DNA of 64,000 bases from Pomacea canaliculata (Eukaryota > Mollusca > Gastropoda > Architaenioglossa > Ampullariidae). The stretch lies in contig NC_037596.1 in assembly GCF_003073045.1 (NCBI RefSeq), forward strand, positions 26,696,392 to 26,760,391, in the 5' to 3' direction. Of this stretch, positions 31,291 through 60,100 are shown piece after piece. Below the pieces are notes generated by a model. It was not told the DNA's origin. It saw only the letters and a program-made list of their open reading frames with translations, and ran no database searches. Numbering within the stretch: the first letter of the stretch is position 1; every line of letters starts with the position of its first letter. The position numbers and the translations under genes are program-made.

Positions 31291-31299
31291 GGAAGCAGA

Positions 31300-32290: not shown

Positions 32291-32299
32291 AGTCACATC

Positions 32300-37908: not shown

Positions 37909-39669
37909 GATGATGTGATGTCAACGAAATTTATTTTAAAAGTTAGTTTTTCAGTAATAGTGGGACGACATGATATGTCGCTTCACGTGGACACAATGCA
38001 ACCTAGTCATTTTTGACAGTGCTCAGCTGTGTAAAAAAGAAAAAAACCAAAAAACTTGTTAACGCAATAATAGTGAGGTGTATGTCTTACTTATGACTCA
38101 AGAGATTTTTCTTTCATGAATTGATGTATATTGTTACATATATTAATTTATTTAACATTTTATTATAGTCAACAAAAATGTAGTAATTTAATTTCATCAC
38201 TATTAAGCACGCATTTTAAATGACTAACTTGTTCGAACAACACATTGCTTTGTTGGTAATATTTGACATAAAAGCTACTCATGTCATTGGTGATCGCTTC
38301 GACTTAGGTGAGAAAGGTCAATGAGAAAACCTGAGGACTGCTGAGAAACTCTTTCTACTTCTTCTCGACACTGGTGTTGAAAACGCCTTAAAGTGGTCTG
38401 GTCAACTAAGGGAAGCTTGTGTGCAGATCCTCGAACACGAACTCATCTGGATCTTTGTCGCTTCTATGTGAAACAAAAAGAAAACATAATCTCAAAAAGG
38501 TGTCGTGAGAGAATGTAGAGGTTTGAAAACTAAGCCTTTGTGAGCTGTATTAATTGAGTAAACATGACTTGTTCCGTAAGCTAATACCAAACGTAAGGTA
38601 TGTATATCTCAGTACTGTGGTCTTTCTCTCTCTCTCCGATTATGCGAGTATGTCAGGGATTGCAATCACATGTCAATGACGTGAATGCCGTTATATAATC
38701 TATTATCTATTTGTCATATAAGCACATACACACATCTGCAATATTGAAGCATTGGTTCATTATTGCTCATACAGCCCTTTCCTGGTCTAAGGCAAGAACT
38801 GAATAACCTTTAAAGTCTTTCTCTGCGCCTGCTCGCATGTTTGTATATGTGTGTGATTCTGTGTATGTGCATGTGCATGGCATATTTCTGTCTGCGACGG
38901 CCAGCGTGCGCATCCACGTGTAAATATAGGCGTGTGGTGGGTGTATGTCTTTTGAATGTGTACGAACGGTTTTCTCTCTGCAGAGTGTAGAGTGGAGAAG
39001 CGGACGCTGTTAACGACGACCCGAAAGTGAGCAAATCCGTCTTCAGCATGATATTTATACCTGTGACTCACGTGGACAGACAGCTGCAACTCCTTTTTCT
39101 AGCCTCGTCATGTGGAGCGACGACCGTCATGACTGTAATTGATAATTGGAGGTGACGTGCAGTAAGAGACTGAGGAAGCACGCACAGAGAATTGTGGCTG
39201 TGTAAGGGGTGTGCAAGTCTGTGCTTGCGTATGTAAATTAATTTGTAATATTAGAGTGATTGTAAGTGTATATTTGTCTATTTATTGGATTGTCTGCGCA
39301 TGCGACTGTGTGTGAGTGTACATTGTTAATAGTTATTACACTTTGCCTATACGCTTTGTAATATTGAAAAACTGCGTTGGTGCGCACGAATGTGTTTATT
39401 AATATCAAATTTTGTATTTGTGAGTATATGTGTATTATGACAGCATGGAGTGGTTTGGTCATGTCTGAAATGACAACTTGCGGAAGACTACGCAGTGGTA
39501 AGCAAAAGAAAAGTCGGGTGACGAATGTACGGAGTGAACAAGCTGTTCACTGGAGGAGGGTCCTTCTCACGAAGGCGCACGGCTGCCACCTGGCGTAGTT
39601 TCCCTCTGCTAAGTCCCATCGTGTCTCCCCTACTACAGGTACCTCCCCTACCAGAGGTTGAGAAAAAAA

Positions 39670-39800
39670 CTATGCCAGTGTGTGTGTGTCGTTGTGTATG
39701 TTGTAAGTGGGAGATGTGTGCGTATTTGTGTGCGAATATGCGCTCGACAATTCCTGCGTGTATTTGGATGTGCATGTGTGTGTGTGTGCGCGCGCGCGGG
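39670..39800 (+). repeat. TG/CG microsatellite (copy A)
   Basis: TG repeats change to a short CG run (GCGCGCGCG near 39788). The equivalent in copy B is 54118-54243. Confidence 0.85.
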
Positions 39801-40181
39801 TGGAGACGTGGCGCGTGTGTATTTGATATGTATGAGAGTGAATGGCACACACATGCTGACTTTAGACGACAAAAGATCGAGACGTGAGACTAACACCTCC
39901 GCCAAACGTGCTTTTCGCTTGACAACAAATGTAAGCAGCGTGCCCACAGCACGTCTGCTCACCCAACCACTATCAGCATGAAGTATTGTCCCTCTCTTTT
40001 AAACTATCTTCTTTCCTTTCCATGGCATGTACAAGTAGGTATGTCTCTTCAGCTGAACTAGGCTCACCTATACAGGACCAACTTGTCCCTTAACTTCATT
40101 CCACTGGACTCTTTGATGTCCTTCGCTTTTTGGTTCACATCAAAACCCAGCCCTTGACGTGCATAGACCTCACATTGCATG

Positions 40182-40200
40182 ACCGGTTCAAAACCGGTTT
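40182..40200. promoter_or_regulatory. paired Grainyhead-type sites forming a hairpin (copy A)
   Basis: ACCGGTT (40182-40188), a three-base spacer CAA and AACCGGTTT (40192-40200) form an inverted pair. AACCGGTT is the established Grainyhead/GRHL core. The pair lies about 2.5 kb upstream of the claudin-like ATG. Confidence 0.45.
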
Positions 40201-42776
40201 CGGTACCTTGTCCCTACCCCCCACTCCCTATCACCACCTTTGCTCTAAACTAGGAAAATCATACATCTGATGTGTCTTCTGATTTCATCCTAAATCTTCT
40301 CATGACCACGTCACAATTGAAACTAACGGTGTTTTTTTTTTAATATTTTAGCGGAGTTCTTATGAAATTTACAAAAGGTAAAGTTATTAAGTAATATATT
40401 CTATACCTGATTTGGAAATCTTGATGACTGCATTATCTACTCGACAGCTACTAATCACCTTTTCCGCTGACTGTCCACTGGGCGCTTATCAACCTTTTGA
40501 AATAAGTATTTCAAATGATTGTGCCTTTTGTAGAGTTTACACATCATTTAAATAGCGTTCGTACACCCTGTGCTATCATTTGTCAGAGCCCAGCTGTCAA
40601 TTAAGCTGCCTTTCGCAGTGCTTTATTGGGGGACACTCCTGCGGTAAGTGTGGCAGCATTTCGAAAAGAGCATTCCCCTAAATCGTTTCTCAGACACATA
40701 TGCAACCGAACTAGTTTACTTTCTTTGACTTTATCGTCATATGACAACAAGCCATGGGTATTGCCACTGGAGCTGAGTCGATCCTAAAGGCTGATATCCC
40801 CATGCACAACCGTTCTTCCCTCTATCCCTCTTTCTTATAGATTACCCCACATACCTTGCTTCGCAGCACATCTCTCGCAACACCAATCAATCAATCAATT
40901 TGTGTGCGTGTGCTTGTGTGAGAGGGGCATATAGGCTTGCAAGAGCAACTTCTTGACCAAAATGGTGAGGGTGACGAATGTGTCGGTTTATCGGTATCCT
41001 GTGGAATTATTCTTTAATAAAAAATAAATGGTTCATTTATGTAATCGCTACATGTTCCAGCGCGACATCTAAAGAAAATGCAAATGTTTACCTGTGCAGC
41101 GGCTTGCTAGTCTTCCCCTTCATGCACAATTGCTCCTCGATCGCAGCAGTTGTATGAACAGAGGCGTTTCATTACTAGCATGAAAGTGAATTTAAATAAA
41201 GGAGAGCATGAAGTATCATCAATGATAAGTAATCACTGATGTTAAAACATCCTGATCGACAATGTCTCCAAGCGGAAAGCAGAGCTAATGTAAAACAATT
41301 CACATCTACTAAGCAGATGGCTTTTGTACTCATTGTGGTCCTAATCTATTCCTTTGAAATTGTTAAGCTTATCGTCATTTGATTATACATCCTTAGCAAA
41401 ATATCACTTTCCTGGTTAGTGTTAGAATCTTGCCATTTCTACTATGTTTATGCTTTTATCATGTTTCAGAATAGTATATTAATTATTCTATATACATTGA
41501 TAGTATTAATACTATTGTGTCGATATTGACTGTGTGTCATCTAGAGATTAACCTAGTAAAGTTTCATTTCGATAGATGCATAGAACAGAGGAGCTGTGGG
41601 ATTGGGTAGATGAGTGAACGGATCGTTCACAGGCGGCAGGCCGCCGCCCGATAAAAATAACATTTAGAAGAAAGCAAAAATCCTGAATGTGCTCAATATT
41701 TCATGCATGGCAGTTGCCTACACATATTTCATTTGTTGAGTTTTCTTACTAATTTTGAATCAATGAAACATTTTTAGATAACTAATTATGATTTAAGAAG
41801 AGATTAAAATATATCTTCTGCCATCCATTATTTTTTATGATTTTGGCTAAAAACCATTGCGTATATTAAAGGGTAGCTAATAGCACAGAAACTTATGCAA
41901 AATTTTGTCCAGAAAATCATGTAGGATCCTTGCTGGGATGTATGATATGATATACCAATCCTAAGCTAAGACACTAATCAACGGAGATTAAGGTCAATTT
42001 CATATCAATGTAAGGTTCGGTATACCAAGTGATAACCTCCAATTAAATCCAAAAGTTACACCAAATTTCCTTGGCTATAAACCTTTCATAGACGGGGATC
42101 GTACAACCTACTCTTTCACACTACGGGACCTTGTTTGAATTTTTACTGATCACTAGTGGGTTTTATAATAATGTTGTGAGGATGATTATCTCAGAGAAAG
42201 AAAAGAATGGAAAACTAAGATTTAGAAATAAACTGTTTCTCACTGGACTTTAGCATTTAGGAGAAAAGAAGTTATTATATTGCACGCTGCTAACCCTTGT
42301 AGGCATCGAAGCAATACGTGTGACCGAAAATCGATCAGCTTCCTGGTTACAGTTATGAAACGTCACGCATAATCGATCCCTGTCGTTATGGCTATGCTCG
42401 TATGCTCGATGTTTACTCGCCGACACGTGCTGTAATCACCCTTGTATTTGTAAGTCATCTCGCCATAAATACATTCTGATATACTTGTAACGCACAATGT
42501 GAAGTCTGTGAACTGATTGACAAATTTTCATTAAAGTAGACGCATAATCAGTTACTTGACGTTAAAATTCCTATATCTCCGAATTTCACATCTCGTAATT
42601 TACGAAGAAGTAGTTGATACAATTTTCTGTTTGTTAATATAAATGTCAGAGAAAATCATACTTAAAGCAAGCGTTAAATTTTATTCGTGTCATCATGTAT
42701 TTATGACATGTTGCATCAATGTCTGTGATGAGATTAGAGAAAAATGCTGTTATCGTTGTCTCTCTCAATCATAATC

Positions 42777-43044
42777 ATGCGTCATTGGCGCCTAATTAAT
42801 CCTATCTGTTGTGTTTTATATAGCTGTAGGCCATTCTGGCTCGAACCAAATGGACTGAAAATTATCGATCCAAACCACGAATTTGTTCGTAACTCTAAGT
42901 GTATATTATATACACTGCAGCACAAATTTGAATCTCATGGCTTGGATATGAGATATCCAACGCGATATTCACGATCATGGAATTGACAACTGCCGAATAT
43001 ATCTTTCGCAATAAGACTTCAAATTAAGTCACGAGTTACCATAG
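42777..43044 (+). CDS. claudin-like first exon, degraded copy at contig end (copy A)
   Basis: The stretch aligns with the clean exon at 57141-57408 but carries many substitutions and indels, so the reading frame is lost. Because the decay grows towards the N gap, this looks like poor consensus at a contig end and not a pseudogene. Limits are approximate. Confidence 0.6.
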
Positions 43045-43208
43045 GAATAAACTCAACGATAAATGTTAATTGCACTAAGGGGTAATTGCAGGTGAATTTT
43101 TATCGTCACTTATCTTCTCATAAAGCATCCACCTTCTCTTTTTTCTTTCAGCGCAGTAAGGATAATCCACGTGTTTGGATCTAGTAAAATCGGTATTTAA
43201 TGATGTTA

Positions 43209-43308
43209 NNNNNNNNNNNNNNNNNNNNNNNNNNNNNNNNNNNNNNNNNNNNNNNNNNNNNNNNNNNNNNNNNNNNNNNNNNNNNNNNNNNNNNNNNNNN
43301 NNNNNNNN
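43209..43308. other. 100-N assembly gap
   Basis: Exactly 100 N bases, a conventional placeholder for a join of unknown length. Sequence on the two sides overlaps, so the true gap size is negative. Confidence 0.98.
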
Positions 43309-44510
43309 GTCAAAGGAATCATTCGCAGACTGTATGCCACGTGTCCTTTGAGAATTACCTAAAATGCAGAATCACAGTCCTCTCGAGCATTCAATACGTC
43401 GCCATCTGCTCACACGACAATGACAGATAAGGCTAAGTTTTACTGGATGGATATATGGCTACTAGCAGTGAGAGAAAAAAGTATATGTTAGATTATTGCG
43501 GATATGATGTCTTTCATAATCGATTGCCCGTCGTCATGAAACAAGCCTGCAAAACAGATAATTTCAGATTAAATTTTTTACAAACTTGTCAACCTATAAT
43601 TTTTAAATACTAATACATCCTTGCCAATTTCTCGCCGTCTGTCAACTGTACTGGAAAGGATACAATCTGCCCACCACATCACACCGCTATCAATGGGGTG
43701 CGTTGCGTATGTGAGTATTTGATATTTTAAGCGGTTAAGTCAAATAACTAACGTCTATCGTAGGAAAATCGTATAGAAATGCTTATCTCCTCATACCATA
43801 ATTCGGTCGTAAAGGCAGACTAAGATGCATAAGATGTACAAAAAAACACGAAAAATCTAGCAACCAATAAACAAGACTCTTCTACTGCAGAAAGAACCTA
43901 GTTTCAGTGAATCATTACTATGGGAGAAAGAAGGTGGACGACGGAACTGTGTCTGTCAGAAGGTCTTTGAAAAAGCGTAATAAATGTGTCACAACGAGTC
44001 GAATGCATTTCTGGGTAGTACGAAGACGCAATCGAAACAGTAAAGTCTCATGTCATTATCAACGAGTTTGGATGTTGCGTAATTTATGAGGCTGGCTGTG
44101 GGTGTTGCATGCATCATTCATTGGAATAGATGGGTGTGGAGTCGGATACCACATGCTCGTTCAGACTGCTCGCAGCCGATCACAAGACATTTCAAGGTTT
44201 TGTTGCAAGAATGGTTCATGTCTTTGTACATAATATTAAGCCACAGTACGCGGAGTGTTAAACGGAACTTTGACGTACCAAGTATAAAATAAAATATTTA
44301 AAAACCAGCATCAAAGAGGGTGTGTCATGTGGTCCGTGGGTGTGTGCGTGATGTGTCATGCGAATGCGCGTAAGTCAAAACAATACAAATTTTGTTCTTA
44401 CTCTCTGAATACTTGACAATATCCTGTGAAATGAAGGTACAAGTGAAGAAACACTTACGGCAAACATGGAACAAAAGAAAAGCGGATGGTAAATATGAGT
44501 TCTAGGACAT
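43309..44510 (-). CDS. 5' fragment of the SRCR-Ig receptor, degraded copy (copy B)
   Basis: The SRCR N-half exon (about 43309-43420) and the signal-peptide exon (about 44510-44456, ATG on the minus strand at 44510) are recognisable by alignment with 28391-28541 and 29757-29811. Both are frame-broken by small deletions, and the rest of the gene is cut off by the gap. It should not be counted as a second gene. Confidence 0.6.
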
Positions 44511-44949
44511 GAGTCTCGTGCAAATCCTGTTTACGTTACTTTACCGTATCCTAAGCTCACTAGCGGAATAAAAATCCTTCAAATAAAGTGAGGACAAGCT
44601 AGAGAGTGACACGTTTTTGAGTAGGCTTTGGCTGATGCAGGTGCATCGGAGATAAAAAATAATTAAACTTGAACTGTTTACGGATCGCCAAACAAACTGA
44701 CGATCGCCAAAAATTAACTGATGGTTGTCATGTCTATTGGCCTGAAACGGTTAAATCTAGTAGGGGTAAGTTCTAATTACTGTAAAACTGCTATGTAAAT
44801 TAATTCCAAATTGTGATAACCCTTATGCTAAGATATTCACTCTGAACCATTTACAATTACAGAATCAACAACACATCCTCTTTTACACGGAACATGTCAT
44901 AAAGACGTAAACAGGAGACAAATTACGCCCAATAAGCATGTGTACCCTG

Positions 44950-45745
44950 ACCACTCTAGTCGCTTAGGTAATGAGATGATGATGTATTGTATAGCGGCAT
45001 ACCGCATCACAAAATTGCGCTCAATGCCGTGACCCAGCAAATACTAACACAGCTGAAAAACAGTGGGTGAATTCTCTCGGGGTAAAATGGCAAGCGAAAT
45101 TGAGAAGTTAAGTCACAATAACATCCTTTACGAAGAAAACGTTGATCGAACTTGTGCAATGACCTCTCCGCCAGCGCCTTTGCATAAGCAGCAGATTATC
45201 AGATCTAAACGGGCAAGAAGAGCGATGTCTAGATACGTACTGGTCGTGTACCAGTTCCGTAAACGCCAACACAAGATCGTGCAATCGAAAGTTTGGACAA
45301 CAGCTCATAATCTTTGCGAACGAATACGGCATTGATAGAGGAAAAAGGAAGAGTGATTGCGTCGAGTCGCCAGACAAACTCTTGTCGACACCTGCTCGCT
45401 CCTCCTCTGATCGCGAAGTGGAGCCATGCGATTCGACGCCAGGCCCGAAACCGGAAAGGAGATGAAGAAGACGGAGCAAGAGCTCGCGGGATTAAGAAGC
45501 GTGACCAGCATTAATAAGCTGACGCTCATTTAATAATGCGGCTATGGAACGGCCACAGCCATCCAAAAAAACGCAGCCTAACACAATGAAAGGTAAAACA
45601 TCATATAAACACAGCGCAACACGAATCTTAACTTGTAACCCATAACCACACAGGGTAACGAAAGCACCGATGAAAATTGAAATAAATTAATAGGAATCAG
45701 AAGTGAGAGAGCTGCAGACGTGCACAGCTAGGAGCGGCATCTTAG
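44950..45745 (-). mobile_element. LINE relic, degraded copy (copy B)
   Basis: This is the counterpart of 30370-31290, shortened by scattered small deletions. It is the same insertion seen in the overlapping contig, not a second insertion. Confidence 0.65.
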
Positions 45746-46779
45746 TTCAGGTGCCAGTCTGACGGAAGCAGATGGAAAACAATTCTGTCCCTTGATTTAA
45801 TAGCAAGTGAAAAGGCTTATATTTTGGGACACAAACTATTATTTTAATTTATTGAGTTCATAATATATAAATGCTCAAACACCTGCATATCCTATTATAT
45901 TCATGAAGTATATTTGCTCTTGGAATCTAATCTCATTTGCAAGTCTGTTAGAATCCTATGCATCAGGAAAATGCTGTATACATGTTATTAATGTTGTTGC
46001 CGTTGTTGTTATTGTTATAATTTTTTAAACACTTTGTCACAGACACTCCGTGCACGTTGACGCCTGAACATTTGAGCGTTCGTTTCTTCACAAAACAACT
46101 CTGCCTTTTTCTGCACGCCTGTGTGCATTTAATTGTACGTTCGTTTTGAATGGGTAAACAAATTTATACCAGTAACTAATAAAAATATAACAATAAATGA
46201 TTTATCAGAGCACACACTCATTCAGTCCTTACGCTGTCTACGGTCTCTAAGTGTACACAGTCCTGAAGAGAAAGTTTCTTCTGTCGGCTGATTATCAACA
46301 AGAATAATAGAGGTTTAAGTCGCCGGCAAAAGTCACTGTTACCTTTCTACACTGATGAGTAACGGACGAATCTCTTAATTTCAGTCACTTAGATATTGTT
46401 GTTCACTGCACCACGATCGAATCTAAGAAACAGTGACTGGGGAATAATTACAGAATCCAAATATATTGTCAGCACACACACACAAATTAGCTTAATCCTC
46501 GACTTCTCCCGCTGGGGGATAGACGTTAAAACACCACCTTCTACTTCTTGGTTAGCATGTTTTCACCTTTGATGTTAGCCCCTAGCTGGTTACTAGGAGA
46601 GCAGGACATCATCACACTTTTTAATGGGTGGTGAAGGGGACGGACAAGCAGCGCCCGAAATGACGCATTGTACTAAACCTTCATCAGCAGTGGGAATTGC
46701 TCACTTCTAGGGCGTCAACAGGTGACAAAAGGTCTTAAAAAAAAGTTTACAGTCACATCTACATTACAGCCCTAGGCAG

Positions 46780-47720
46780 CAATGAAGTTCGTGAATGAGC
46801 ATCGATGCTGTAAGAAACAAGTCTACGAACACAAAGCGGAAAACATAACTTTGAGGTCTGTTGCTGGATCTCTCCTGTTTCCGCCCTCTGTGTTATTGTG
46901 TGTGTAAGACAACAGAATGCATTAAGCAACATTTACGCTAAACATAGCAAGTAGGGCTTTTTAAGATCAAGGAAGATTTGGGTAATGTTCTTTTTCTTCT
47001 TTTCTTTCATTCTTTTCTCAGTTTCTCTTAGGGACGGTTGTTTGTGCGCTAAGCTAACCAACTCTTGTGAGGTTGAGATTACTGAAATTCTGCTTGTTAT
47101 TCAGAATAATCTGCCTCGAATATACTTCGTTCCTTTGACTTCAAACCAAGTCACCAGCCTTATTTAAAGATTTCGTTTATATTATATACGAGTGGCTATT
47201 TTCTTCCTCACCTCTATTTATCAGAAAATATACATCGGAAAAGAGCCTTCTGAAAGTTGGGTTTCCAAAATATTTCCGCCTGAAAAGGAACGTCTGTTCA
47301 TCATGTAAGTAGTTTATGTGTGCCTCTAAGTTGTTATGAGAGAGAGTAATTCGTTCCATGGCAAATGGGGAACTCAAGGAAAAGCGTCTTATTCCCGAAG
47401 TATGAAGCGGAGTCGAGACCCACTAACACTTCTGCATGTTTATTACCCTATTAACTCATTAGCTACCCTTAATAACTACAGCTCTATGGTAAAACACATC
47501 TGTGAGTCTGGACACCACTTAAGAACTTCGAAAACAGACGCTGTCCTCGAGTTGCCCGTGATGCCTCAGGGCAAAGACTTGCCCTTGCTTTATAAACTAC
47601 CGCCCAACAGATGTTACCTCGACAGTCTTTGCTTCACTGGTGGTGTAAAGAAGTCGGAAGTATTTTGTTTTCATAAAGTCAAATGTAATTCGAATACATC
47701 TGGATATCAGGTAATAACTG
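46780..47720 (+). CDS. candidate extracellular exons of the tyrosine-tail receptor (copy B)
   Basis: This is the counterpart of 32300-33300. Here a 129-codon frame (47336-47725) reads through LELPVMPQGKDLPLLYKL and RCYLDSLCFTGGVKK to the donor CAGGTAATAAC. A segment at 47024-47167 reads LRDGCLCAKLTNSCEVEI, and a segment ending at the donor ATGTAAGTAG near 47308 reads KIYIGKEPSESWVSK. The codon-like continuity supports coding, but the exon order and frame remain open. The domain is not recognised. Confidence 0.4.
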
Positions 47721-49198
47721 AATAATCACTGTGGACTAATAAGATAAATGAAAACGAAATCAGGTAATAAATGAAGAGTAATCTTTATTTAATACTGGGA
47801 CCATATATAATGACACCATGTTATAATATATCATAAAATTTGCCACACGGACAAATTTAAGGCTATGTAGGTCATGTATAAAGTGACAAAGGTGATAAAA
47901 GTGATATGTGAAATAAAAGTGAACATTTCTGATGCATCAACAGACTGCAAGAAAGGCTTATCGTGGTAAGTATTATCGGTGGCAAGAAACTTTGCCTCTC
48001 TAATTGAACAACTGAGGTCTTTTTATGTTATAAATTCACTAAATTTATTTTCAGCGTTCGCTAGTCCAATGGACGGTGCGCGACAACACAAATTTCGGGT
48101 ACGAAACTTTATTACTATTTGCATTTCTGTGCTAAATCGTGGATGGTTTTAGAAGTCATTGATTAAACAGCTTTTTGCTTCCTCTGTGTGTTTTGTGTTT
48201 TTGCATCTTAAGATCTGCAAACTGTGCACTCAAATCCAGTGCCGTCCACGCCCACTAATATATAATATTGAATATAAAACAGGAGAGATTAATAACGACA
48301 CAGCTGACGGCAATATGGCCGAAAAACATTGGTTTCTTGTGAATTGTCCGCTGCCTCAGGTGGTGTGTTTGTGTGCGGATCTGAGATATATAATAGATGA
48401 ATTTAATATGCCACAGTAGCAGTAAAATAAACAATCTTGTTAAATGCTAAATGAAGTATTTATTTTTTTTTTAAGATTCAGCTGAGATGTTAACATTCCA
48501 GAAACTCATTATACTTATATTGCAAGATATCAAAATTTGTGCTATAGAGTAAGTGACTTTTATCGCGGAGGCTGGGGAAACAAAACAGAATGATTTTCAG
48601 TTTCGATTTCACACACCCTCTTTTACTTGCACATCACAAGCACCTAAGTGTTATCTAATATGTGAACATGCGTGCGTGTGCCCTTCCTTGTATGTCATCG
48701 AGTGAGTGCGCTTGTACGGACTTGTTCGCACACCAACGCTGTGTGTTTGCACGAGTCTGTGTTTGTGTGTACGTGCACGCATGAGTCACATCCATAGATC
48801 GATAGATATAATGAAGGTCGCTTGTTGGTGTTTGGGTCTTGATAACATAAATCTTACATTTCACTGAAATATTTTTGCTGGTAGCGTTCAGAAAGATAGC
48901 TAGCGCAGCAATAGTGGAAGTATCAGGAGAATCAGAAGTTGTAGAAATGTTGTAGAAAAAGTAGTAAAGTGGAAGAAAACAGAAAAATAATCATGAGTAA
49001 GACTACTCGTTATTACGATTATATTGCGCCTTTAATTTCGAGAAAGCCGTCTTTGTCATGCGTACTCAAAGGTCGTACCAAAAGGTCGAAGTTGGGCCTT
49101 GTATGGAAGTCAGAGATTTTACCGTTCATGAAAATGCCTCATAGTATAATGTTAATGAAAACAAGGACAAGTAATATGAGTCTGTAAATATTTTTCAG

Positions 49199-52100
49199 CA
49201 GGAGGCCGCGCTCTACAGATCATGGTGCAGGGACATATTGTCTTCATGTCTGTGCTGATGACTGTAACCTTTGCTGGCGGTATTCTGCTCTGGTCAGTGT
49301 TCATTGTTCACTCGGATCTGTACCCTAATTTATTTTAATGCACCTTTCTAAAGGATGCCAGGGAAAGCTTTGTTACTGACACCTATGATAACATCTCTAA
49401 GAGTCTTTTAATCGGTGAAACAGTAGAACCCTGTATCTTGAACGTGCATTTAGTTATTACAGTGTAGGTGACAACACACACTCTGTTCCTGAGAAACTTT
49501 TGGAATCGTCAATTGTGGTTCTTCAGACTTAGGTCTTCCATTCTGTAGATATTTCCGTAATGGAACATCTTCTTGATACATGGACTTTTTCACCAGACAT
49601 GCATGTTCAAACATGCCATCATTCTGTCAAAATGTTTATATGAACGCCATATACACAACATTTACCAAACAAAGTCGCATAAAGCTGACACTAAATGTAC
49701 AGTCAAGAAAGCCTTTGGTGCCTATTTATTTCGACACCACTTCCTGTTTTCTCCAGGTTAAGGAGTAGGAAGAAACTCCAGCAGTACACCGTTCTAAAGT
49801 GGATTCAAAGAAAAATATATATCTGGCGTCACAGAATGCGAGGGCGCAGCTCTGTCATGGAGGCATATGAACTACAAGCTTTGGAAGAAGCACAGAATAC
49901 TCAACCAGAGGCAGCAGTGGCGGTCCTTAATTCAGAATCAGATGAGGACACCGATGTGGAAACTTCCTCGTTGAAGTTCATAAGCCATTCACATCATGTC
50001 CACCTGGCGCGCTCTTTCTCCCTGCAGATTACGCAGTGGTGATTCTGAGCGGTCATCACGCAACGAGGTCCAGAACGAGACTCGAGAGGTCTAGACCGTG
50101 GAAGGCGCAGAAGGACTGATGCACCAATACAGAAGTCCAGTGACATCGACACAAACGACTGCGACGAAAACATGACTTCCCCTACCTTTAATACCCATCC
50201 AAAGGGTGCTCGAAGAAAAAGCCCACAAAAGCTGAATCTTGTGAAGGATACCTCAGCGGAAAAAAGCGTGAGCAGCTGGACGCCATGTTCATCTCTACTG
50301 GCAGGAGTCAAGACACGCGCAGACAAGAACGCTTACAGTTCTCAACCTGAGACCTCAGACTCTGACAACGACTACTACAGCGAGGTTCAGGACAGCTCGT
50401 GGGCAGAAGGCTTGAATGATAAACAAGCATGCCGTTCTCTATTGTGGGCTATGACTGCGAAAGGTGGCGGGTACCGGAAGCCGACACTTGCATCCACAGC
50501 TCAGGTACAAGGGTCTGCTTGTAACTCTCCTGCGACAATCCGGAACGCTGATTTTCTCAAGATTAATAGCCCCAACACAAGCCAATCAAGCTTCTGTACA
50601 ACCGAACACCATCACCATTATCCAGCAAAAAGTCCCGACATGCAGCAGAAGCAGAACGACGATTCCGTAGCGAAAACGCAACTTTGGCAGCCGTTTGCTG
50701 CAAAGTGACTACAGTGAGGTGGATGACTACAGCGACGCGGAACCTGAAGGTGTTAGCAACCTCCAAGGTGAATCAATCCCTACCAGGGCTAACCTTCTCG
50801 GGATCACAGACGTCCAGTGACTCTCATTACAGTGAAGTAAATGAAAGCGACACTTGCAAAGGCACGAGTACGAGAGCTTAGATATCTCCAATCCTCACTC
50901 TTTCAGCGAAAGCGAAACAGGAGAGTTTGGGTAAATGAGGGAGATGAGAGTCATTCCAGCTCGGAAAATGATGGAAATTATGACTACAGCGAAGTTCATG
51001 ACGACTACGTTAATGAAGCAAACATTGACGACGACAGCGGCGACGACACGGTGAAGATTGGGTGTAAGGTTGGAGGCTGGGAAGGACGCGTTGGTGTAAG
51101 ACCTTCACTCGGAGATGTCGGCAGTGTAGATGATGAGAAGGCGACTGTGAGACACAGCGGTGAAGATTGCTACCGACCTGTCATCACAGAACGTGCGTGC
51201 AGACAGTTATCGAGAGATGATTGTGGAACTCAGGTTGAGCAGAGAGATCCTGCAGCTGAAACTCAAAGAGATGACGACGGTGTCTATGTAAACGCTCGAT
51301 CAGAAAGACTTTCTTGCGTTTCAGACGAGGACGTGAGTAATTATCAGAATGTTGAGGAGGAGAATGGTGGTGTGTTCCAAAGCGACGACCTTGCGACAGC
51401 AACGACCAGCGTTGTCTGCTCCCGGCGCAACATATCTCCATCAACAGCGAAGTCCGCAAGTCACGGAAATTACCTGACGCCAGCATCCGGACCAGACCTG
51501 GTTCACGATGGTGAGATGGACGACCCGCAAGACAGTGTCAGTATTAGTTCTTATGACACTTGCACCGACACTGAAGAAGGACAGGTCAGCATTGAAGACA
51601 CCGGGGATCTTTGTGCAATGAAAGCCGATAAGAACAGAGGAGACGAAGACGATGCTGAAGGAAATGAAACAGGTGGTGAAGCTAACTACATGAATCTTGA
51701 GGAAGAGTTCAATTCCACTAATTCCCTCAACAGTCGAAAATTATCTGTGGACAGGAAAAGCTGCCTGAAACACACAGTCCAAAAACAAGACACATCTCTC
51801 CTCTTTCAACCGGACACCAAAGTCCAATCCTTGGTCAAAGTCAGCAGCGATCCCACTGTCACAATCAGAGGAAAACTCAATAGTGTCGCGACTAAAGAGA
51901 GACACAACTAACGAAAGTAATGTTGGGGTGGAGGTTTGTGGGCACAATGACGGAGAGGTTAACGGACCGCTGGCGACATTTGTATCTACCACGGGAACAA
52001 GTGGACGTCCAGATGAACCTGTCGCCTCTGACTACAGCGAAAGTGATTATCAAAACGTCGACACCAGGCACAGCGCCAGCGACTACTTCAATAACGAGGA

Positions 52101-52329
52101 CCTCATGTCTGCAATGGCAGACGAGTTTCCGTTTTCTTCTAGTGTGCTTGGGCACCAGGCCCTCCCCGGGGACACCGGCTTCGGTGACAAAAGAATTAGC
52201 TCTGATGCGACCAGTATCTCGACGGAGTCAGATGATGCGGGCATGAACGGATTTGAACATGTACTCGGCAGACTAGACACTGGTGGTGTTGGTGAAGTGG
52301 TAACCAACTATTATACGATTCTTAAGTGA
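49199..52329 (+). CDS. tyrosine-tail receptor: membrane span plus long cytoplasmic exon (copy B, better read)
   Basis: Exons 49199-49292 (membrane span, ATG at 49222) and 49757-52329 (tail, 2573 nt). Tail motifs, with positions: DNDYYSEV (50365-50387), SDYSEVDDYSDAE (50704-50742), SHYSEV (about 50823-50840), YDYSEVHDDYVNEA (50979-51020), VYVNARSE (51282-51305), SNYQNVEEE (51333-51360), NYMNLEEEF (51685-51711), SDYSESDYQNV (52028-52060), SDYFNNEDL (52078-52104) and TNYYTILK then TGA (52303-52329). SDYSEV, SHYSEV, SNYQNV and SDYQNV fit the ITIM pattern. The YxN motifs fit Grb2-type SH2 ligands, and TNYYTI fits TxYxxI. The frame is open for 356 codons (50841-51911) and broken at a few homopolymers elsewhere. 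No kinase or phosphatase domain is present. This may be an inhibitory, co-stimulatory or adaptor-type receptor; function is inference. Confidence 0.8.
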
Positions 52330-55300
52330 GATGATGTGATGTCAACGAAATTTATTTTAAAAGTTAGTTTTTCAGTTATAGTGGGACGACATGATTTGTC
52401 GCTTCACGTGGACACAATGCAACCTAGTCATTTTTGACAATGTGCTCAGCTGTGTAAAAAAGAAAAAAAAAAAAAACTTGTTAACGCAATAATAGTGAGG
52501 TGTATGTCTTACTTATGACTCAAGAAGATTTTTTCTTTCATGAATTGATGTATATTGTCTACATATTAATTTATTTAACATTTTATTATAGTCAACAAAA
52601 ATGTAGTAATTTAATTTCAGTCACTATTAAGCACGGCATTTTTTAAATGACTATACTTGTTCGAACAACACATTGCTTTGTTGGTAATATTTGACATAAA
52701 AGCTACTCATGTCATTGGTGATCGCTTCGACTTAAGGTGGAGAAAGGTCAAAATGAGAAAAACCTGAGGACTGCTGAGAAACTCTTTCTACTTCTTCTCG
52801 ACACTGGTGTTGAAAAACGCCTTAAAGGTGGGTCTGGTCAACTAAGGGAAGCTTGTGTGCAGATCCTCGAACACGAACTCATCTGATCTTTGTCGCCTTC
52901 TATGTGAAACAAAAAGAAAACATAATCTCAAAAAGGTGGTCGTGAGAGAATGTAGAGGTTTGAAACTAAGGGCTTTGTGAGCTGTATTAATTGAGTAAAC
53001 ATGACTTGTTCCGTAAGCTAATACCAAACGTAAGGTTGTATATCTCAGTTACTGTGGTCTTTCTCTCTCTCTCCGATTATGCGAGGATGTCAGGATTGCA
53101 ATCACATGTCAATGACGTGAATGCCGTTTATATATCTATTATCTATTTGTCGATATAAGCACATACACACATCTGCAATATTGAAGCATTGTTCATTATT
53201 GCTCATCAGCCCTTTCCTGGGTCTAAGGAAGAACTGAATAAACCTTTAAAGTCTTTCTCGTGCGCCTGCTCGCATGTTTGTATATGTGTGTGAGTTCTGT
53301 GTATGTGCATGTGCATGGATATTTCTGTCTGCGACGGCCAGCGTGCGCATCCACGTGTAAATATAGGCGTGTGTTGTGGGTGTATGTCTTTGTCAATGTG
53401 TACGAACGGTTTTCCTCTGCAGAGTGTAGGAGTGGAGAAGCGGACGCTGTTAACGACGACCCGAAAGTGAGCAAATCCGTCTTCAGCATGATATTTATAC
53501 CTGTGACTCACGTGGACAGACAGCTGCAACTCCTTTTTCTAGCCTCGTCATGTGGAGCGACGACCGTCATGACTGTAATTGATAATTGGAGGTGACGTGG
53601 CAGTAAGAGACTGAGGGAAGCACGCACAGAGAAATTGTGTGTGTAAGGGGTGTGTGCAAGTCTGTGCTTGCGTATGTAAATGTAATTTTGTAATATTAGA
53701 GTGATTGTAAGTGTATATTTGTCTATTTATTGGATTGTCTGCGCATGCGACTGTGTGTGAGTGTACATTGTATAGTTATTACACTTTGCCTATACGCTTT
53801 GGTAATATTGAAAAACTGCGTTGGTGCGCACGAATGTGTTTATTAATATCAATTTTGTATTTGTGAGTATTGTGTATATGACAGCATGGAGTGGTTTGGT
53901 CATGTCTGAAATGACAACTTGCGGAAGACTACGCAGTGGTAAGCAAAAGAAAAGTCGGGTGACGAATGTGACGGAGTGAACAAGCTGTTCACTGGGGAGG
54001 AGGGGTCCTTCTCACGAGGCGCACGGCCGGCCACCTGGCGTAGTTTCCCTCTGCTAAGTCCCATCGTGTCTCCCCTACTACAGGTACCTCCCTACCAGAG
54101 GTGAGAAAAAAACTATGCCAGTGTGTGTGTGTCGTTGTGTATGTTGTAAGTGGGGAGATGTGTGCGTATTTGTGTGCGAATATGCGCTCGACATTCCTGC
54201 GTGTATTTGGATGTGCATGTGTGTGTGTGTGTGCGCGCGCGGGGGGGAGAGGTGGCGCGTGTGTATTTGAGTATGTATGAGAGTGAATGAGCACACACAT
54301 GCTGACTTTGAGACGACAAAAGATCGAGGACGTGAGACTAACACCTCCGCCAAACGTGCTTTTCGCTTGACAACAAATGTAAGCAGCGTTGCCCACAGCA
54401 CGTCTGCTCACCCAACCACTACTCAGCATGAAGTATTGTCCCTCTCTTTTTAAACCTATCTTCTTTCCTTTCCATGGCATGTACAAGTAGCTGGTATGTC
54501 TCTTCAGCTGAACTAGGCTCACCTATACAGGACCAACTTGTCCCTAACTTCATTCCACTGGACTCTTTGATGTCCTTCGCTTTTGGTTCACATCAAAGAC
54601 CCAGCCCTTGACGTGCATAGACCTCACATTGCATGACCGGTTCAAAACCGGTTTGCGGTACCTTGTCCCTACCCCCCACTCCCTATCACCACCTTTGCTC
54701 TAAACTAGGAAAATCATACATCTGATGTGTCTTCTGATTTCATCCTAAATCTTCTCATGACACGTCACAATTGAAACTAACGGTGTTTTTTTTTTTAATA
54801 TTTTAGCGGAGTTCTTATGAAATTTACAAAAGGTTAAAGGTTATTAAGTAAATATATTCTATACCTGATTTAGGAATCTTGATGACTGCATTATCTACTC
54901 GACAGCTACTAATCACCTTTTCCGCTGACTGTCCACTGGGCGCTATCAACCTTTTGAAATAAGTATTTTCAATGATTGTGCCTTTTGTAGAGTTTACACA
55001 TCATTTAAATAGCGTTCGTACACCCTGTGCTATCATTTGTCAGAGCCCAGCTGTCAATTAAGCTGCCTTTCGCAGTGCCTTTATTGGGGGACACTCCTGC
55101 GGTCAAGTGGTGGCAGCATTTCGAAAGAGCATTCCCCTAAATCGTTTCTCAGACACATATGCAACCGAACTAGTTTTACTTTCTTTGACTTTATCGTCAT
55201 ATGACAACAAGCCATGGGTATTGCCACTGTGAGCTGAGTCGATCCTAAGAGCTGATATCCCCATGCACAACCGTTCTTCCCTCTATCCCCCTCTTTCTTA

Positions 55301-56650
55301 TAGATTACCCACATACCTTTGCTTTCGCAGCACATCTCTCGCAACCACCAATCAATCAATCAATTTTGTGTGTGTGTGTGCTTGGTGTGAGGAGGGGGGC
55401 ATATAGCTTGCAAAGAGCAACTTCTTGACCCAAAATGGTGAGGGGTGACGGAATGTGTCGGCTTTATCGGTATCCCTGGTGGATTATTCCTTTTAATAAA
55501 AAAATAAATGGGTTCATTTATGTAATCGCTAATGTTCCAGCGCCGACATCTAAAGAAATGCAAATGTTTACCTGTGCAGCGGCTTGCTAGTCTTCCCCTT
55601 CATGCACAGATTGCTTCCTCGATCGCAGCAGTGTATGAACAGAGGCGTTTTCATTACTAGCATGATAAGTGAATTTAAATAAAGGAGCATGAAGTATCAC
55701 AATGATAAGTAAGCACTGATGTTAAACATCCTGATCGACATGTCTGCCAAGCCGGAAATGCAGAGCTGTAAAACAATCGACATCTACTAAGCAGTGTGGC
55801 TTTTGTACTCATTGTGGTCCTAATCTATTCCTTTAGAATTGTAAGCTTTCGTACATTTGTATACATCCTTGCAAAAATATCACTTTCCTGGTTAGTGGTT
55901 TTCGTTGCCATTTCTACTAATGTTTTTATTGCTTTTATCAGTTTTCAGAATAGTATATTAATTATTCTGATATACATATACTATGTATACTATTGTTGCA
56001 GTATTGGTGGGCATCTAGAGATTAAGCTTAGTAAGTTTCATTCAGTGGCATAGGAACCAGAGGGGGTGGGGTTGGGTGTTCACGGGCGGCAGCCGCCCCC
56101 CTTAAAAAAACATTTTTGAAGAAGCAAAAATGTGAATGTTGTTCAATGTCAGCATGGAGTTTGCCTACGTCATTGTCATTTTGTTGTTTTTCTTACTAAT
56201 TTTGTCAATAAACATTTAGATAACTAAGATGAATTTAAAGGGTTAAGAAATATATCTTCAGCCATCTATATTTTTAAATTTTGGGGTAAAAAACCTTTTT
56301 CGTGATATTAAAGGACTAATAGGCAGAAAACTCAGTGCAAGATACTTTTTCCCAAAATCTGAGGAATCCTTTCTGGGTGTATATATATATACACTTACCT
56401 ACAAACACTATCACGCACAGGAAAGGGTCAAAATCATGATATCATGTTTATACCAAGATACCTCCAATTAACCAAAGGTCCCAGATTTCCTTTGGCTATA
56501 AGACCTTCATGTACAGTACACCTGACCGTACACCTGACGCCTGTGTTTGATATTTTTCTGACCTTATAGTAATGTTTGTAGGGTATATCTCGAGAAGAGA
56601 AGAGGAGAAACTAAGATTTGAGAAATAACTTCTTTCACTGAGCTTTACGC
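52330..56650 (+). other. intergenic stretch between receptor tail and claudin-like gene (copy B)
   Basis: Same content as 37909-42700. GT-rich low-complexity sequence lies at 53270-53400 and 54118-54243; no gene is recognised. Frames on the minus strand through the GT-rich parts are shadows. Confidence 0.5.
54636..54654. promoter_or_regulatory. paired Grainyhead-type sites forming a hairpin (copy B)
   Basis: ACCGGTT (54636-54642), CAA and AACCGGTTT (54646-54654) are unchanged from copy A, while the flanks carry indels. They lie about 2.5 kb upstream of the claudin-like start codon at 57141. Confidence 0.45.
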
Positions 56651-57140
56651 ATTTAGAGAAAAAAATATATATTGCACCCTGCTAGACCTTTAACATCAGA
56701 CATCGTGGTGCCGAAAACGCTCCAGCTTCCGGGAGTTGGGACCGTCACGCAAAAGGCGGATCCCGTCGTAAGGCTTGGCTCGCTCGATGTTTGCTCGCCG
56801 CGTGCTGTACACTCCTGTGTTGTAGTCATGCTGCTTGAAAGCATTACTGATTACTGTTTGAACCCTACATGGTGAAGTTTGTTGAAACTGGATTACAAAG
56901 TTCTTCTGAAGTAACGCATCATCGAGTTTACCTGAGCGTTAAATTCCTTCATACTCCGAATTTCCAGCCGGTATTTTCGAAAAGTAGTTTGAAAAGTTTT
57001 CTGGTGTTATTATATGTCGAAAACTCAGTAAACAAGCAGGAATTTTTGTTATCGTGTCATCGGATTTCTTGTGCATGTGCGTAATGCTGGTGATGAGATA
57101 GAGAGAAAAGTGCTGTTACCGCTTGTCTACCTCAACAATC

Positions 57141-60100
57141 ATGGCGTCTTGCGCGCTGATTACAGCCGTCATCTGTGTGTTGATAACTGCTGTGGCCACC
57201 ATCGTGGCTTTCGCTACACCAAACTGGCTGAAATTTCGAGGCCAAAACCCCACCGAGTTGTGTGGTAACTCAAGGTATTTAGACAGCTGCAACAACTGTG
57301 ACTGTGGGCTGTGGTTGAGATGCCAAGGCGATATCACGATCAGTGGGAACTTGGACAACTGCCGATGGTTCTTCGCAAACGACTTCGAAATTGAGCAAGC
57401 ATTACCAGGTAATAAATAAGGTTATAAATGTTAATGCACTAAGGGGGATTGAGGATGATTTTTTTTCTGTCACTCTATCTCTCATGAAGCATCCCCCTTC
57501 CCTTTTTCTTTTAGCGCAGGAGGATAATCCACGTGTTAGGGATCAGTAAAACGTATTTATGATTGTTAGACTATTAAAATGTGTTTATTTTTGTGTGTGT
57601 TGCTATTCTGGTGCCCAACGTATCTTTTAAAAAAAAAGTTTAATGCATATACAATGTAATGTACTCATCAGTGTGAAATGTTAAAATCCGTATTTGTGAG
57701 AGTGAAAAAATTTTTTTATAAAAAAAAGTCTGCAGTTGTACTTCTTTGTCAACATGACTCTTTGAGCTATGTAGCTTTATCTCCTAACAGTTGTATCCTG
57801 CTTAATTTGAGCATAAGATTGGTTGAAATGTCATTGATAATGCTCTGATGCAACTGGAATAATAGTTGCCCATCTTCTGACATTGATCAGTGCACTTTGG
57901 TGCTATAATAGTGGTTAGCATATCCCATCCCTTAAAAATATAGTAAAGATTTTTTTCCTTGGATTACACAGTGTTTCTCGTCTGTATAATGCAAGAGTTC
58001 TTAGACCCACAGATAAAATCATGGACATGTATAGGTGGATTGCTGTCTATATCTGCCAAGACCAACGCTTTGCCTCTTGAGAAGTTCTCCGCTGTTAGTC
58101 TCGGCCAGCCTAAACAAAGAATATGAATAAACCAGAAGATTCGTCGTCTCATACCTCATTTTAGTAGTTAATCTGAAATATGAATAAACCGGAAACTTTG
58201 TCGTCTGATGCCTCGTTTTAGTAGTTATCTGGAAAAAATCGTCTGCCAGCAGTCCAGTAATGCAAGTTTGTGATGAATAATCAAGGAACATACAAGCCAT
58301 TTGCAGAAAAATTACTGATGTTAATATATATTATTGTTTATTTTATATTAATAATGTATAGTTCATATAGTTACAAATCTGTGTACTTGTATTAATATTA
58401 TTATGATATTTATCTCTTATGGTAGTAATCGTCATTATTGTCTTGTACACATAAAATGTTGTCACTGACATGTGATAACACTGATGAAATTTCCAACTTT
58501 CATGTTTGGTGTATTAAGTGCATAATGTCTTGAGAGTTGAAATCTCCAATCTAAAACCTTTTTTTTTCAGACCCACCAGTGTTTGGATTTTTAGATCCCC
58601 TTAGGAAATTTTCTTGATGATATTTTAGTATTTGGAACTCTCTTACGTTATTTACATGTGGCTTTTTGGGCTAAAAATATAGTCATTTTTAATGTAAAAA
58701 TATATATTAATATTTAATATGTAAATTGCAGATTCATAGCACTTCATCCTTATTGTTTGTTCCCTGATTCTTCTTTGTGTCTGTCTTTTATTATTTGTCT
58801 GCATAGTTTTCTCCTTTTGTCTTTTGTATTCTTTCCATGCCTCCAACTTGTCCTAAGGGCTGGTCCTTCATGAGTGTGATTATGCGCTATATATGTCACT
58901 CATTTATTGTAATTAAATATTGTCCTATGTTTTTGTCAGGATGCTAAGTGTTTCTCCCATGTTATTTACTTTTGCTAAAAAAAAGTCTGAAGAGTAAGAT
59001 AATGTGTTTAAGAGATAAGTAGTAATAAAAGGTGTTGCCCCTTTGCATTTGTAAGGAATGTAAGATGGCCCTGGCACAAAGAACAAAGAGTGTTGTGTGT
59101 GGTTTGCATTTTTTCACACGTTTTATGCCTGCGGCATCTCTGATGGTGCTTTGTGGTGGAGTTGGTTTGTTTTCACTACATACATGTTTTCCATCTTGTC
59201 TTCTTACCTCCTTCCCCTTTTTTCCCCCTTCTTTTTTCTAATGCTCTCTCCACCCCCTCCTATCCTTTTGACCCAATCTTTCTCTTCCCTTCCCTCAACA
59301 CACTTCACTTATGTGGCACCATACCACCACCCATTTTTTCTTTGTGCCTAATATACATGGAGTTTCTTTATAAGTTGATTTATCTAATTTTGTTATGTTT
59401 ATGCTTAATTGATGCTTAGTTCTCGATTCCTGCATTTTCAGGGGAAAGTTGGGGGTGGGGGGGCTTTTAAGGCATAGGTTGTGTGTGCCAAAAACAAAAT
59501 TAATTTTCTCTTCCTGCATGTTCTGGTTTTTTTTTTTGTTTTTTTTTTTTTTTTGTTTTTTTTTACATTCTTGTTTCCCTCTCCTCTTCTAAAAACTGGT
59601 GTGTGTGCGCACTAAAGAATGACAGACCTTATTGTATTTCAGGTCGTTTACAATGGACCCAGGTGAAAAATGTCTTCTGGGGTCAGATTTATGTTATGCT
59701 GTTTTTGTTTGGTTGGTTTTGGGGTTTTGCTTTTTTTTTTAACATGTGCTGCTGTTGCTAGCTTTATACAGACTTCGATCATCTTGTGACACTGCAAGAC
59801 AGCCTCTAATCACTCTGGTTTTAAAAATAAATCCCCTAATTAAAGTACCAATAGAAATTTACACACTCAGGAACTGAAGTATAACGTCTTTAGGAAGAAG
59901 CTTGAAAGAGGTGGACAAACGTTTGTCTGTCTGCAGCCTACATAACTGAATATCATAAAATAAGAATAGCCTTTGTGAAGCCAGTCTCATGTTAAGAATT
60001 ACTGAAGCTGTTGTGTGTAGATTTCTATGCAAAACAAAAGACAAGCTACTAAATTGACAGCCTCAAAGCGAAGACAAATAGACCACTCAAATAGACAGCC

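What the first reader, a model, noticed from the sequence alone, without database searches (positions are those of the whole stretch)
49199..52329. Receptor-like gene with an ~857-residue tyrosine-motif tail in one exon
Seen in sequence: a membrane span followed by a basic stop-transfer, then one 2.57-kb exon without any enzyme domain but with four YSEV, six YxN and a terminal TNYYTI motif spread over its length, set in acidic Ser/Asp-rich sequence. Established: YxN binds Grb2-type SH2 domains; (S/I/V/L)xYxx(I/V/L) is the ITIM pattern; TxYxx(V/I) is the ITSM pattern. Inference: a multi-docking receptor tail combining both motif classes. I recognise no named family with this layout.
Basis: partly seen in the sequence, partly recalled or inferred. 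Interest (0 to 1): 0.88.

Follow-up and report, generated by a model that had tools for sequence, protein, structure and literature searches.

The report
Membrane-anchored tyrosine-motif docking protein gene
A probable animal gene for a membrane-anchored protein whose very long disordered tail carries many docking sites for signalling proteins; it may be an invertebrate counterpart of vertebrate immune adaptors such as LAT, but it was read from error-rich DNA in which the same locus appears to have been assembled twice, and no relatives could be examined.

Summary
The motifs are real; two parts of the description change. (1) The tail is not one open frame as deposited. The window holds a 100-N gap, and the 14.8 kb before it repeats as the 14.3 kb after it, differing mostly by one-base indels: most simply two overlapping, poorly polished contigs of one locus, so one gene. 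Using only alleles seen in either copy, exactly one of six frames is open over the whole 2.57 kb. It joins in phase to the membrane-span exon (881 aa, 857-aa tail). (2) "Receptor" is not shown. No ectodomain was found. The span exon has its own ATG, an in-frame stop 45 nt upstream in both copies, and about four residues before the span: the topology of a transmembrane adaptor (LAT/LAX type). An upstream acceptor-like site leaves a receptor open. Four YSEV (0 of 20,000 shuffles) appear in every read-through tried. The six YxN (36 of 20,000) lie in uninterrupted ORFs of copy B, but other read-throughs keep only two or three. The single ITSM is not above chance. No Pfam or PDB match. Most likely a membrane-anchored phosphotyrosine scaffold. 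Orthologues and transcripts, which would settle it, were out of reach. A new variant of a known kind, of moderate interest.

The parts
49199..49292 (+). Membrane-span exon, copy B. Acceptor-like TTTTTCAG ends at 49198; ATG at 49222; encodes MVQGHIVFMSVLMTVTFAGGILLW with the last codon split; donor CTG|GTCAGT after 49292
49177..49179 (+). In-frame stop (TGA) 45 nt upstream of the span-exon ATG, present in both copies
49293..49756 (+). Intron, in-phase junction (GTCAGT...TTTTCTCCAG)
49757..52329 (+). Tail exon, copy B: stop-transfer LRSRKK plus 850-odd residues; stop TGA at 52327-52329. Frame broken as deposited; open with 7 single-base allele choices from copy A
50376..50387 (+). YSEV 1 (DYYSEV)
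50710..50721 (+). YSEV 2 (SDYSEV, strict ITIM)
50828..50839 (+). YSEV 3 (SHYSEV, strict ITIM)
50985..50996 (+). YSEV 4 (YDYSEV)
51006..51017 (+). YxN 1 (YVNE); in all 4 read-throughs tried
51285..51296 (+). YxN 2 (YVNA; copy B only, copy A has indels here)
51342..51353 (+). YxN 3 (SNYQNV, also strict ITIM)
51687..51698 (+). YxN 4 (YMNL; copy B only, copy A has a one-base insertion here)
52048..52059 (+). YxN 5 (SDYQNV, also strict ITIM)
52084..52095 (+). YxN 6 (YFNN)
52303..52320 (+). Terminal TNYYTI (ITSM pattern; not above chance)
49785..49796 (+). Juxtamembrane YTVL (YxxPhi), 10 residues after the span; possible endocytic signal (recalled motif)
53237..53242 (+). AATAAA, possible poly(A) signal about 0.9 kb after the stop (none seen in the matching stretch of copy A)
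34782..37908 (+). Same gene in copy A (span exon 34782-34875, intron to 35337, tail exon from 35338); frame broken by its own indels
28435..43208 (.). Copy A of the repeated segment, running to the last base before the gap
43209..43308 (.). 100-N assembly gap between the two copies
43309..57568 (.). Copy B of the repeated segment, starting at the first base after the gap

Best explanation
One animal gene, not two, encodes a single-pass membrane protein of about 881 residues. The N-terminal exon gives an outside segment of about four residues and the span. A single 2.57-kb exon gives a basic stop-transfer and a probably disordered 857-residue cytoplasmic tail. It most likely works as a transmembrane adaptor (scaffold). 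After a partner receptor activates Src- or Syk-type kinases, tail tyrosines in acidic surroundings are phosphorylated. The YxN sites (six in the best-supported reading) then recruit Grb2-type SH2 adaptors. The four YSEV sites recruit a second class of SH2 protein (Src/Csk/SHP-like; which one is inference), and several copies of each allow multivalent clustering at the membrane. Shown here: the shared open frame, the in-phase span exon, motif enrichment, acidic context of the tyrosines, lack of a recognised domain. Inferred: start codon and topology, disorder, phosphorylation, partners, direction of signal. For the broader claim, a membrane-anchored phosphotyrosine docking protein of either topology, I would give about 0.7 (lowered from 0.75 on finding that the YxN number depends on the read-through); the confidence below is for the adaptor form.
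For: With free choice between alleles present in the two copies, the frame that joins the span exon has 0 stops over 2.57 kb. The other five frames keep at least 3, 4, 10, 11 and 11; two control stretches keep 9-10 and 13; 200 column shuffles have minimum 7 and mean 13.9. Only the GTCAGT donor was seen to give an in-phase junction to the tail; neighbouring GT sites run into stops (read by eye); junction checked by translation. Motif enrichment in the read-through: YSEV 0 of 20,000, YxN 36 of 20,000, acidic residues within 5 of Tyr 24.5% vs 17.7% (53 of 20,000). YSEV is 4 in all 4 read-throughs, and the six YxN lie in uninterrupted deposited ORFs of copy B. ATG context GATCATGG (A at -3, G at +4; consensus recalled) and in-frame stop 45 nt upstream in both copies. 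No ectodomain domain hit. TRAP layout in PMC2803307 (part 1 of 3 read); LAX has five of ten tyrosines in Grb2 motifs (PMC3291652, passages).
Against: A TTTTTCAG acceptor-like site ends 23 nt before the ATG. If it is used, the exon continues an upstream exon in phase 1, common for extracellular modules (recalled). The one A/B difference between that site and the ATG is silent in the span frame, as expected if coding (1 site only, by eye). The donor has C at +3, a weak site (recalled consensus). No CxxC follows the span (first Cys at residue 105). YxN falls to 2 or 3 in the three read-throughs less close to copy B, where it would not be above the shuffle mean of 1.4 by much. In the far upstream part (28.4-31.3 kb) the indel load makes the two-copy frame test blind on both strands, so an ectodomain there is not excluded. 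The 4 tail substitutions between the copies are 1 silent and 3 replacement (positions, read by eye in the frame): no sign of purifying selection. No orthologue or transcript was available.
Confidence: 0.42

Rival explanations
1. A true receptor: the span exon is preceded by ectodomain exons that lie in the badly sequenced part, are too short, or belong to no known family. The tail then works as a ligand-gated docking tail with both activating (YxN) and inhibitory (ITIM-like) sites.
For: Acceptor-like TTTTTCAG just upstream of the span exon with an open phase-1 continuation. Ig-domain exons lie nearby on the opposite strand at 24.2-26.6 kb. A molluscan Ig receptor with a tyrosine motif is known (oyster CgIgIT2; PMC11999971, section 15 read).
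Against: No ectodomain domain among 44 + strand ORFs (>=45 aa) of 26.5-35.3 kb and 29 of 30 of 43.2-49.8 kb, 51 short ORFs (27-44 aa) of 28.0-34.9 kb, or 47 of 49 ORFs (>=55 aa, low-complexity ones already filtered out) of 1-26.5 kb. Nine typed signatures of extracellular domains gave one match, of no evident meaning. No separate open run of 330 columns or more was listed on the + strand between 33306 and 35276 of copy A.
Confidence: 0.35
2. The tail exon is used without the span exon: an unspliced reading starts at ATG 49695 and gives a cytosolic docking protein (IRS/GAB/DOK-like in role, recalled families).
For: ORF 49695-50042 begins with ATG right after a stop and runs into the tail frame; the same ORF start exists in copy A (35276).
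Against: The extra residues come from a polypyrimidine tract ending in CAG, the mark of an acceptor. An A/B difference there replaces Ser by Arg (position). No PH, PTB or other Pfam domain in the read-through.
Confidence: 0.1
3. A decayed gene or two tandem paralogues: the frame breaks are real mutations and the repeat is a true duplication.
For: The deposited sequence is broken in both copies. The copies also differ by substitutions (209 in the overlap; 3.2% in the span exon and intron).
Against: 1,075 gap events, 853 of them one base, against 209 substitutions; a shared open frame exists although each copy is broken. The copies meet exactly at a 100-N gap and run to both contig ends, with indels densest toward the ends of the overlap: a suffix-prefix overlap of two contigs.
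Confidence: 0.07

Closest known systems
Vertebrate transmembrane adaptor proteins (TRAPs: LAT, NTAL/LAB, LAX, PAG, LIME, SIT, TRIM)
   Same: Very short outside segment (if the ATG at 49222 is used), one span, long cytoplasmic tail without enzyme domain, many tyrosine motifs including YxN for Grb2. LAX, SIT and TRIM also lack the palmitoylation motif (PMC2803307, part 1 of 3 read).
   Different: The tail is 857 residues, largely one exon, with 25 tyrosines, against up to 10 motifs in TRAPs (PMC2803307). YSEV repeats. No match to any Pfam model. Presumed invertebrate.
CD22-type receptors (ITIM plus YENV in one tail)
   Same: ITIMs and a YxN Grb2 site in one tail (PMC5302901, start of abstract and passages).
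   Different: CD22 has Ig domains outside and a tail of 131 residues with six tyrosines. No ectodomain was found here and the tail is over six times longer.
Oyster CgIgIT2 (molluscan Ig receptor with tyrosine motif)
   Same: Single-pass, tyrosine-based signalling in a mollusc (PMC11999971, section 15); our organism is only presumed to be one.
   Different: Five Ig domains and an ITAM. Here no Ig domain was found on this strand, and 0 ITAM spacings.
Snail gene BSUD.3983 (Biomphalaria sudanica, 817 aa, annotated with a SIT adaptor domain, on the same contig as the PTC2 cluster)
   Same: Similar length and adaptor-type annotation in a snail. Only its table row and a passage naming it were seen (PMC10875847).
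   Different: Our read-through does not hit any Pfam model at E<=10.

Membership tests
Transmembrane adaptor proteins (TRAP/LAT kind) | Short extracellular segment | tested here: inconclusive
   About 4 residues if translation starts at 49222; supported by ATG context and upstream stop; an acceptor-like site leaves upstream coding exons open
Transmembrane adaptor proteins (TRAP/LAT kind) | Single transmembrane span with positive residues inside | tested here: met
   Best 19-residue mean 2.12 at residues 6-24, best beyond residue 40 is 0.80; LRSRKK follows
Transmembrane adaptor proteins (TRAP/LAT kind) | Long cytoplasmic tail without enzyme domain, with several tyrosine SH2 motifs | tested here: met
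   857 aa, 25 Tyr, 4 YSEV (4 of 4 read-throughs), 6 YxN (6, 2, 3 and 2 in 4 read-throughs); 0 Pfam families
Transmembrane adaptor proteins (TRAP/LAT kind) | Juxtamembrane CxxC palmitoylation motif (LAT, LIME, NTAL, PAG only; not LAX, SIT, TRIM) | tested here: not met
   First Cys at residue 105. Not required for LAX/SIT/TRIM (PMC2803307)
LAT/LAX/PAG/SIT sequence families (membership by descent) | Match to the family profile | tested here: not met
   No Pfam model at E<=10 for the 881-aa read-through. That Pfam holds models for these families is recalled. Hence 'works like', not 'is a'
ITIM/ITSM receptors | Ligand-binding ectodomain | tested here: inconclusive
   None found, but the search is blind or weak at 28.4-31.3 kb
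ITIM/ITSM receptors | ITIM pattern above chance | tested here: met
   4 vs mean 1.0, 360 of 20,000 shuffles; two of the four are the YQNV sites that depend on the read-through
ITIM/ITSM receptors | ITSM pattern above chance | tested here: not met
   1 vs mean 0.15, 2,817 of 20,000 shuffles
ITAM receptors | YxxI/L-x6-12-YxxI/L | tested here: not met
   0 found
TRAPs and ITIM receptors alike | Motifs conserved in orthologues; tyrosine phosphorylation; SH2 binding | not testable with these tools
   No animal proteomes, reads or assays available

The most novel reading that the evidence does not exclude
An invertebrate, LAT/LAX-style transmembrane adaptor with an exceptionally large tail in one exon (six Grb2-type YxN and four repeated YSEV sites). 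[quoted passage not shown]
Probability: 0.33. Interest if true: 0.8.

Novelty: new variant of a known kind. Interest (0 to 1): 0.5.

Why it matters
LAT is described from vertebrates (PMC10079008, passages). SLP-76 and GADS homologues exist in amphioxus, but no LAT-like molecule was found there (PMC5431462, passages). A membrane-anchored, multi-YxN scaffold in an invertebrate would suggest that this way of wiring receptors to Grb2 is older or arose twice, and would give a concrete gene to test. If it is instead a receptor, it would be one with an unusually long tail combining Grb2-type and ITIM-type docking sites. The window is also a caution: a duplicated, indel-ridden contig overlap can pass for a gene pair or for pseudogenes.

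Tried and rejected
Considered and dropped: a tandem gene pair (copies meet at a 100-N gap and reach both contig ends); a pseudogene (shared open frame although each copy is broken); the 47330-47725 ORF of copy B as an ectodomain exon (that stretch of B has about 20 gap events per 500 columns relative to copy A, and A does not keep the frame); ATG 49695 as start (acceptor tract); the terminal ITSM as evidence of design (not above chance).

Led nowhere: the window's own genome is not held; PDB sequence search 0 hits at E<=1 for a 356-aa tail ORF and for the 881-aa read-through; the viral-contig scan found no relative (that collection was never likely to hold one); single-sequence fold of the 356-aa ORF gave mean pLDDT 34.7, compatible with disorder but uninformative without an alignment, and the start of that ORF may be out of the true frame; the bacterial promoter scan is meaningless here. 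The MAFFT alignment of the copies mis-aligned indel-rich ends and was replaced. In one search, 86 of 209 substitutions lie within 2 columns of a gap, so that count is an upper bound. The two-copy open-run test is blind where indels are dense (28.4-31.3 kb and 41.8-43.2 kb of copy A). A late check showed that YSEV and TNYYTI do not depend on the read-through but the YxN number does; odds were lowered a little for that.

Rows left out: Pfam sets took 29 of 30 + strand ORFs in 43.2-49.8 kb (the one with Ns dropped), 47 of 49 + strand ORFs in 1-26.5 kb, 60 of 72 minus-strand ORFs in 1-28.5 kb and 26 of 34 + strand ORFs in 52.3-64 kb (dropped by hand, mostly overlapping or low-complexity; the lists of 49, 72 and 34 had already been filtered for low complexity by the script). 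Minus-strand ORFs inside 28.5-64 kb were not scanned. In one search two of the eleven signatures defined were skipped as too loose.
Full report
Sequence quality and the second copy. The window contains one run of N, 100 bases at 43209-43308. Self-comparison shows that 28435-43208, up to the last base before the gap, matches 43309-57568, from the first base after it. Aligned base by base, the two copies differ by 1,075 gap events (853 of one base) but only 209 substitutions in 15,230 columns, and indels are densest toward the two ends of the overlap, which are the contig ends. 86 of the 209 substitutions lie within two columns of a gap. This is what two overlapping, poorly polished contigs of one locus look like when a scaffolder puts them side by side. 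A real tandem duplication would need its junction to coincide with the gap. I therefore treat the finding's gene and its twin at 34782-37908 as one gene read twice.

The open frame. As deposited, the tail is not one exon in one frame: copy B is split into five overlapping ORFs. Copy B opens completely with 7 single-base choices taken from copy A. Copy A needs 16 to end on the same stop codon. Letting every indel column take either copy's state, the frame that begins RSRKK has no stop over 2.57 kb. The other two + frames keep at least 3 and 4 stops, the three minus frames at least 10, 11 and 11. Two equally long control stretches keep 9-10 and 13, and 200 column shuffles never fall below 7. So a coding reading exists in the frame that joins the span exon, and the breaks look like errors. 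Indel events are common everywhere: 66 in 2,538 aligned columns of the tail exon, 85 in 2,605 of the 3' flank and 150 in 3,124 of the 5' flank, so the exon is spared a little but not clean.

How firm is the reading? Many open paths exist. In four read-throughs (closest to copy B, closest to copy A, longer alleles, shorter alleles) YSEV is 4 each time and TNYYTI is present each time, but YxN is 6, 2, 3 and 2. The copy B reading is best supported. It needs the fewest changes, and its deposited ORFs of 356 aa (50841-51908) and 186 aa (51769-52326) hold four and two of the six YxN without any repair. Locally, the codons of ten of the twelve motifs examined (eleven SH2 motifs and the juxtamembrane YTVL) are intact in both copies; YVNA (51285) and YMNL (51687) are intact only in copy B (read by eye).

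Gene anatomy. The span exon ends at 49292 (...CTCTG|GTCAGT) and the tail exon starts at 49757 (TCTCCAG|G). The junction is in phase and gives MVQGHIVFMSVLMTVTFAGGILLW-LRSRKKLQQYTVLKWIQRK... and 881 residues in all. Hydropathy shows one span only (2.12 against 0.80 beyond residue 40). The tail has 25 tyrosines, net charge -67, 0 Pfam families at E<=10 and 0 PDB hits at E<=1. A possible poly(A) signal lies at 53237 in copy B; copy A shows none in the stretch scanned.

Motifs against chance. In 20,000 shuffles of the tail read-through, YSEV (4) was never reached, YxN (6) was reached 36 times, strict ITIM (4) 360 times and ITSM (1) 2,817 times; shuffling within blocks of 60 gave the same picture (0, 54, 342 and 3,659 of 20,000). 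Acidic residues are enriched around the tyrosines (24.5% against 17.7%; 53 of 20,000). These tests were run on the read-through closest to copy B. With the 2 or 3 YxN of the other readings, YxN would not stand out. Nor can shuffles show conservation: the copies differ by only 4 substitutions in the tail exon (1 silent, 3 replacement by my reading), so orthologues are needed.

Receptor or adaptor. I looked for an ectodomain: Pfam scans of + strand ORFs in 26.5-35.3 kb and 43.2-49.8 kb (78 proteins including five tail ORFs), 51 short ORFs and 47 ORFs of 1-26.5 kb gave only weak, unrelated matches (best E 0.006, a family of unknown function). Ig domains (best E 2.5e-6) and an SRCR domain (4.7e-9) are on the minus strand at 24.2-26.6 kb and about 3.0-3.5 kb. 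The span exon has an ATG with A at -3 and G at +4, an in-frame stop 45 nt upstream in both copies, and only about four residues before the span. This is the layout that PMC2803307 (part 1 of 3 read) gives for TRAPs: short ectodomain, one span, long tail with up to 10 tyrosine motifs, CxxC in LAT, LIME, NTAL and PAG but not in LAX, SIT and TRIM. The present protein has no juxtamembrane Cys. Against this, TTTTTCAG just upstream looks like an acceptor, and the reading stays open from it into the span; the most error-ridden upstream stretch could hide exons. I give the adaptor about 0.42 and the receptor 0.35.

Mechanism. Shown: span, basic stop-transfer, enriched YSEV, YxN in the best reading, acidic context. 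From papers: YxN in LAT binds Grb2, LAX has five of ten tyrosines in Grb2 motifs, and Grb2-SOS1-Grb2 can cross-link such scaffolds (PMC3291652, passages). CD22 combines ITIMs with a Grb2 site (PMC5302901, start of abstract and passages). Inferred: Src/Syk-type phosphorylation, Grb2-type recruitment at the YxN sites, and a second SH2 partner at the four YSEV sites.

What is known. The searches of the held library (listings seen 0 of 0, 10 of 10, 20 of 46, 16 of 16, 15 of 466, 2 of 2 and 4 of 4) showed me no paper describing an invertebrate LAT-like adaptor. They are not exhaustive. The amphioxus SLP-76 paper says no LAT-like molecule was found there and that an unknown membrane-bound molecule might take the role (PMC5431462, passages).

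Verdict. Real motif-rich gene; description partly wrong on frame and copy number; 'receptor' unproven; most likely a membrane-anchored phosphotyrosine scaffold of known kind but unusual size and motif mix.

Noticed in passing
28435-43208 and 43309-57568, gap 43209-43308: End-to-end repeat across a 100-N gap with about five times more indel events than substitutions: probable false duplication from two unmerged contigs. Any gene reported in these stretches should be counted once.
   Followed up: yes
49199-49756 versus 34782-35337: The span exon and first intron differ by 3.2% substitutions (18 of 555 columns) between the copies, while the tail exon differs by 0.16% and the flanks by 0.4-0.5%. 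One change is Met to Val inside the span (by eye). A short divergent haplotype block or gene conversion; unexplained.
   Followed up: partly
24229-26627, minus strand: Three exon-sized ORFs with Ig-domain matches (E 2.5e-6, 3.2e-5 and 0.028): an Ig-superfamily gene running the opposite way upstream.
   Followed up: partly
3006-3546, minus strand: SRCR domain ORFs (best E 4.7e-9 and 1.2e-8).
   Followed up: no
57102-57416, plus strand: Weak claudin/PMP22 or LHFP-like match (E 0.0017-0.0027), downstream neighbour of the gene.
   Followed up: no
17315-17686 and 21541-21892: A 0.37-kb direct repeat, 85% identical.
   Followed up: no
14334-14783, minus strand: Weak EF-hand-like matches (best E 0.011) beside a long serine/proline/histidine low-complexity stretch.
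   Followed up: no
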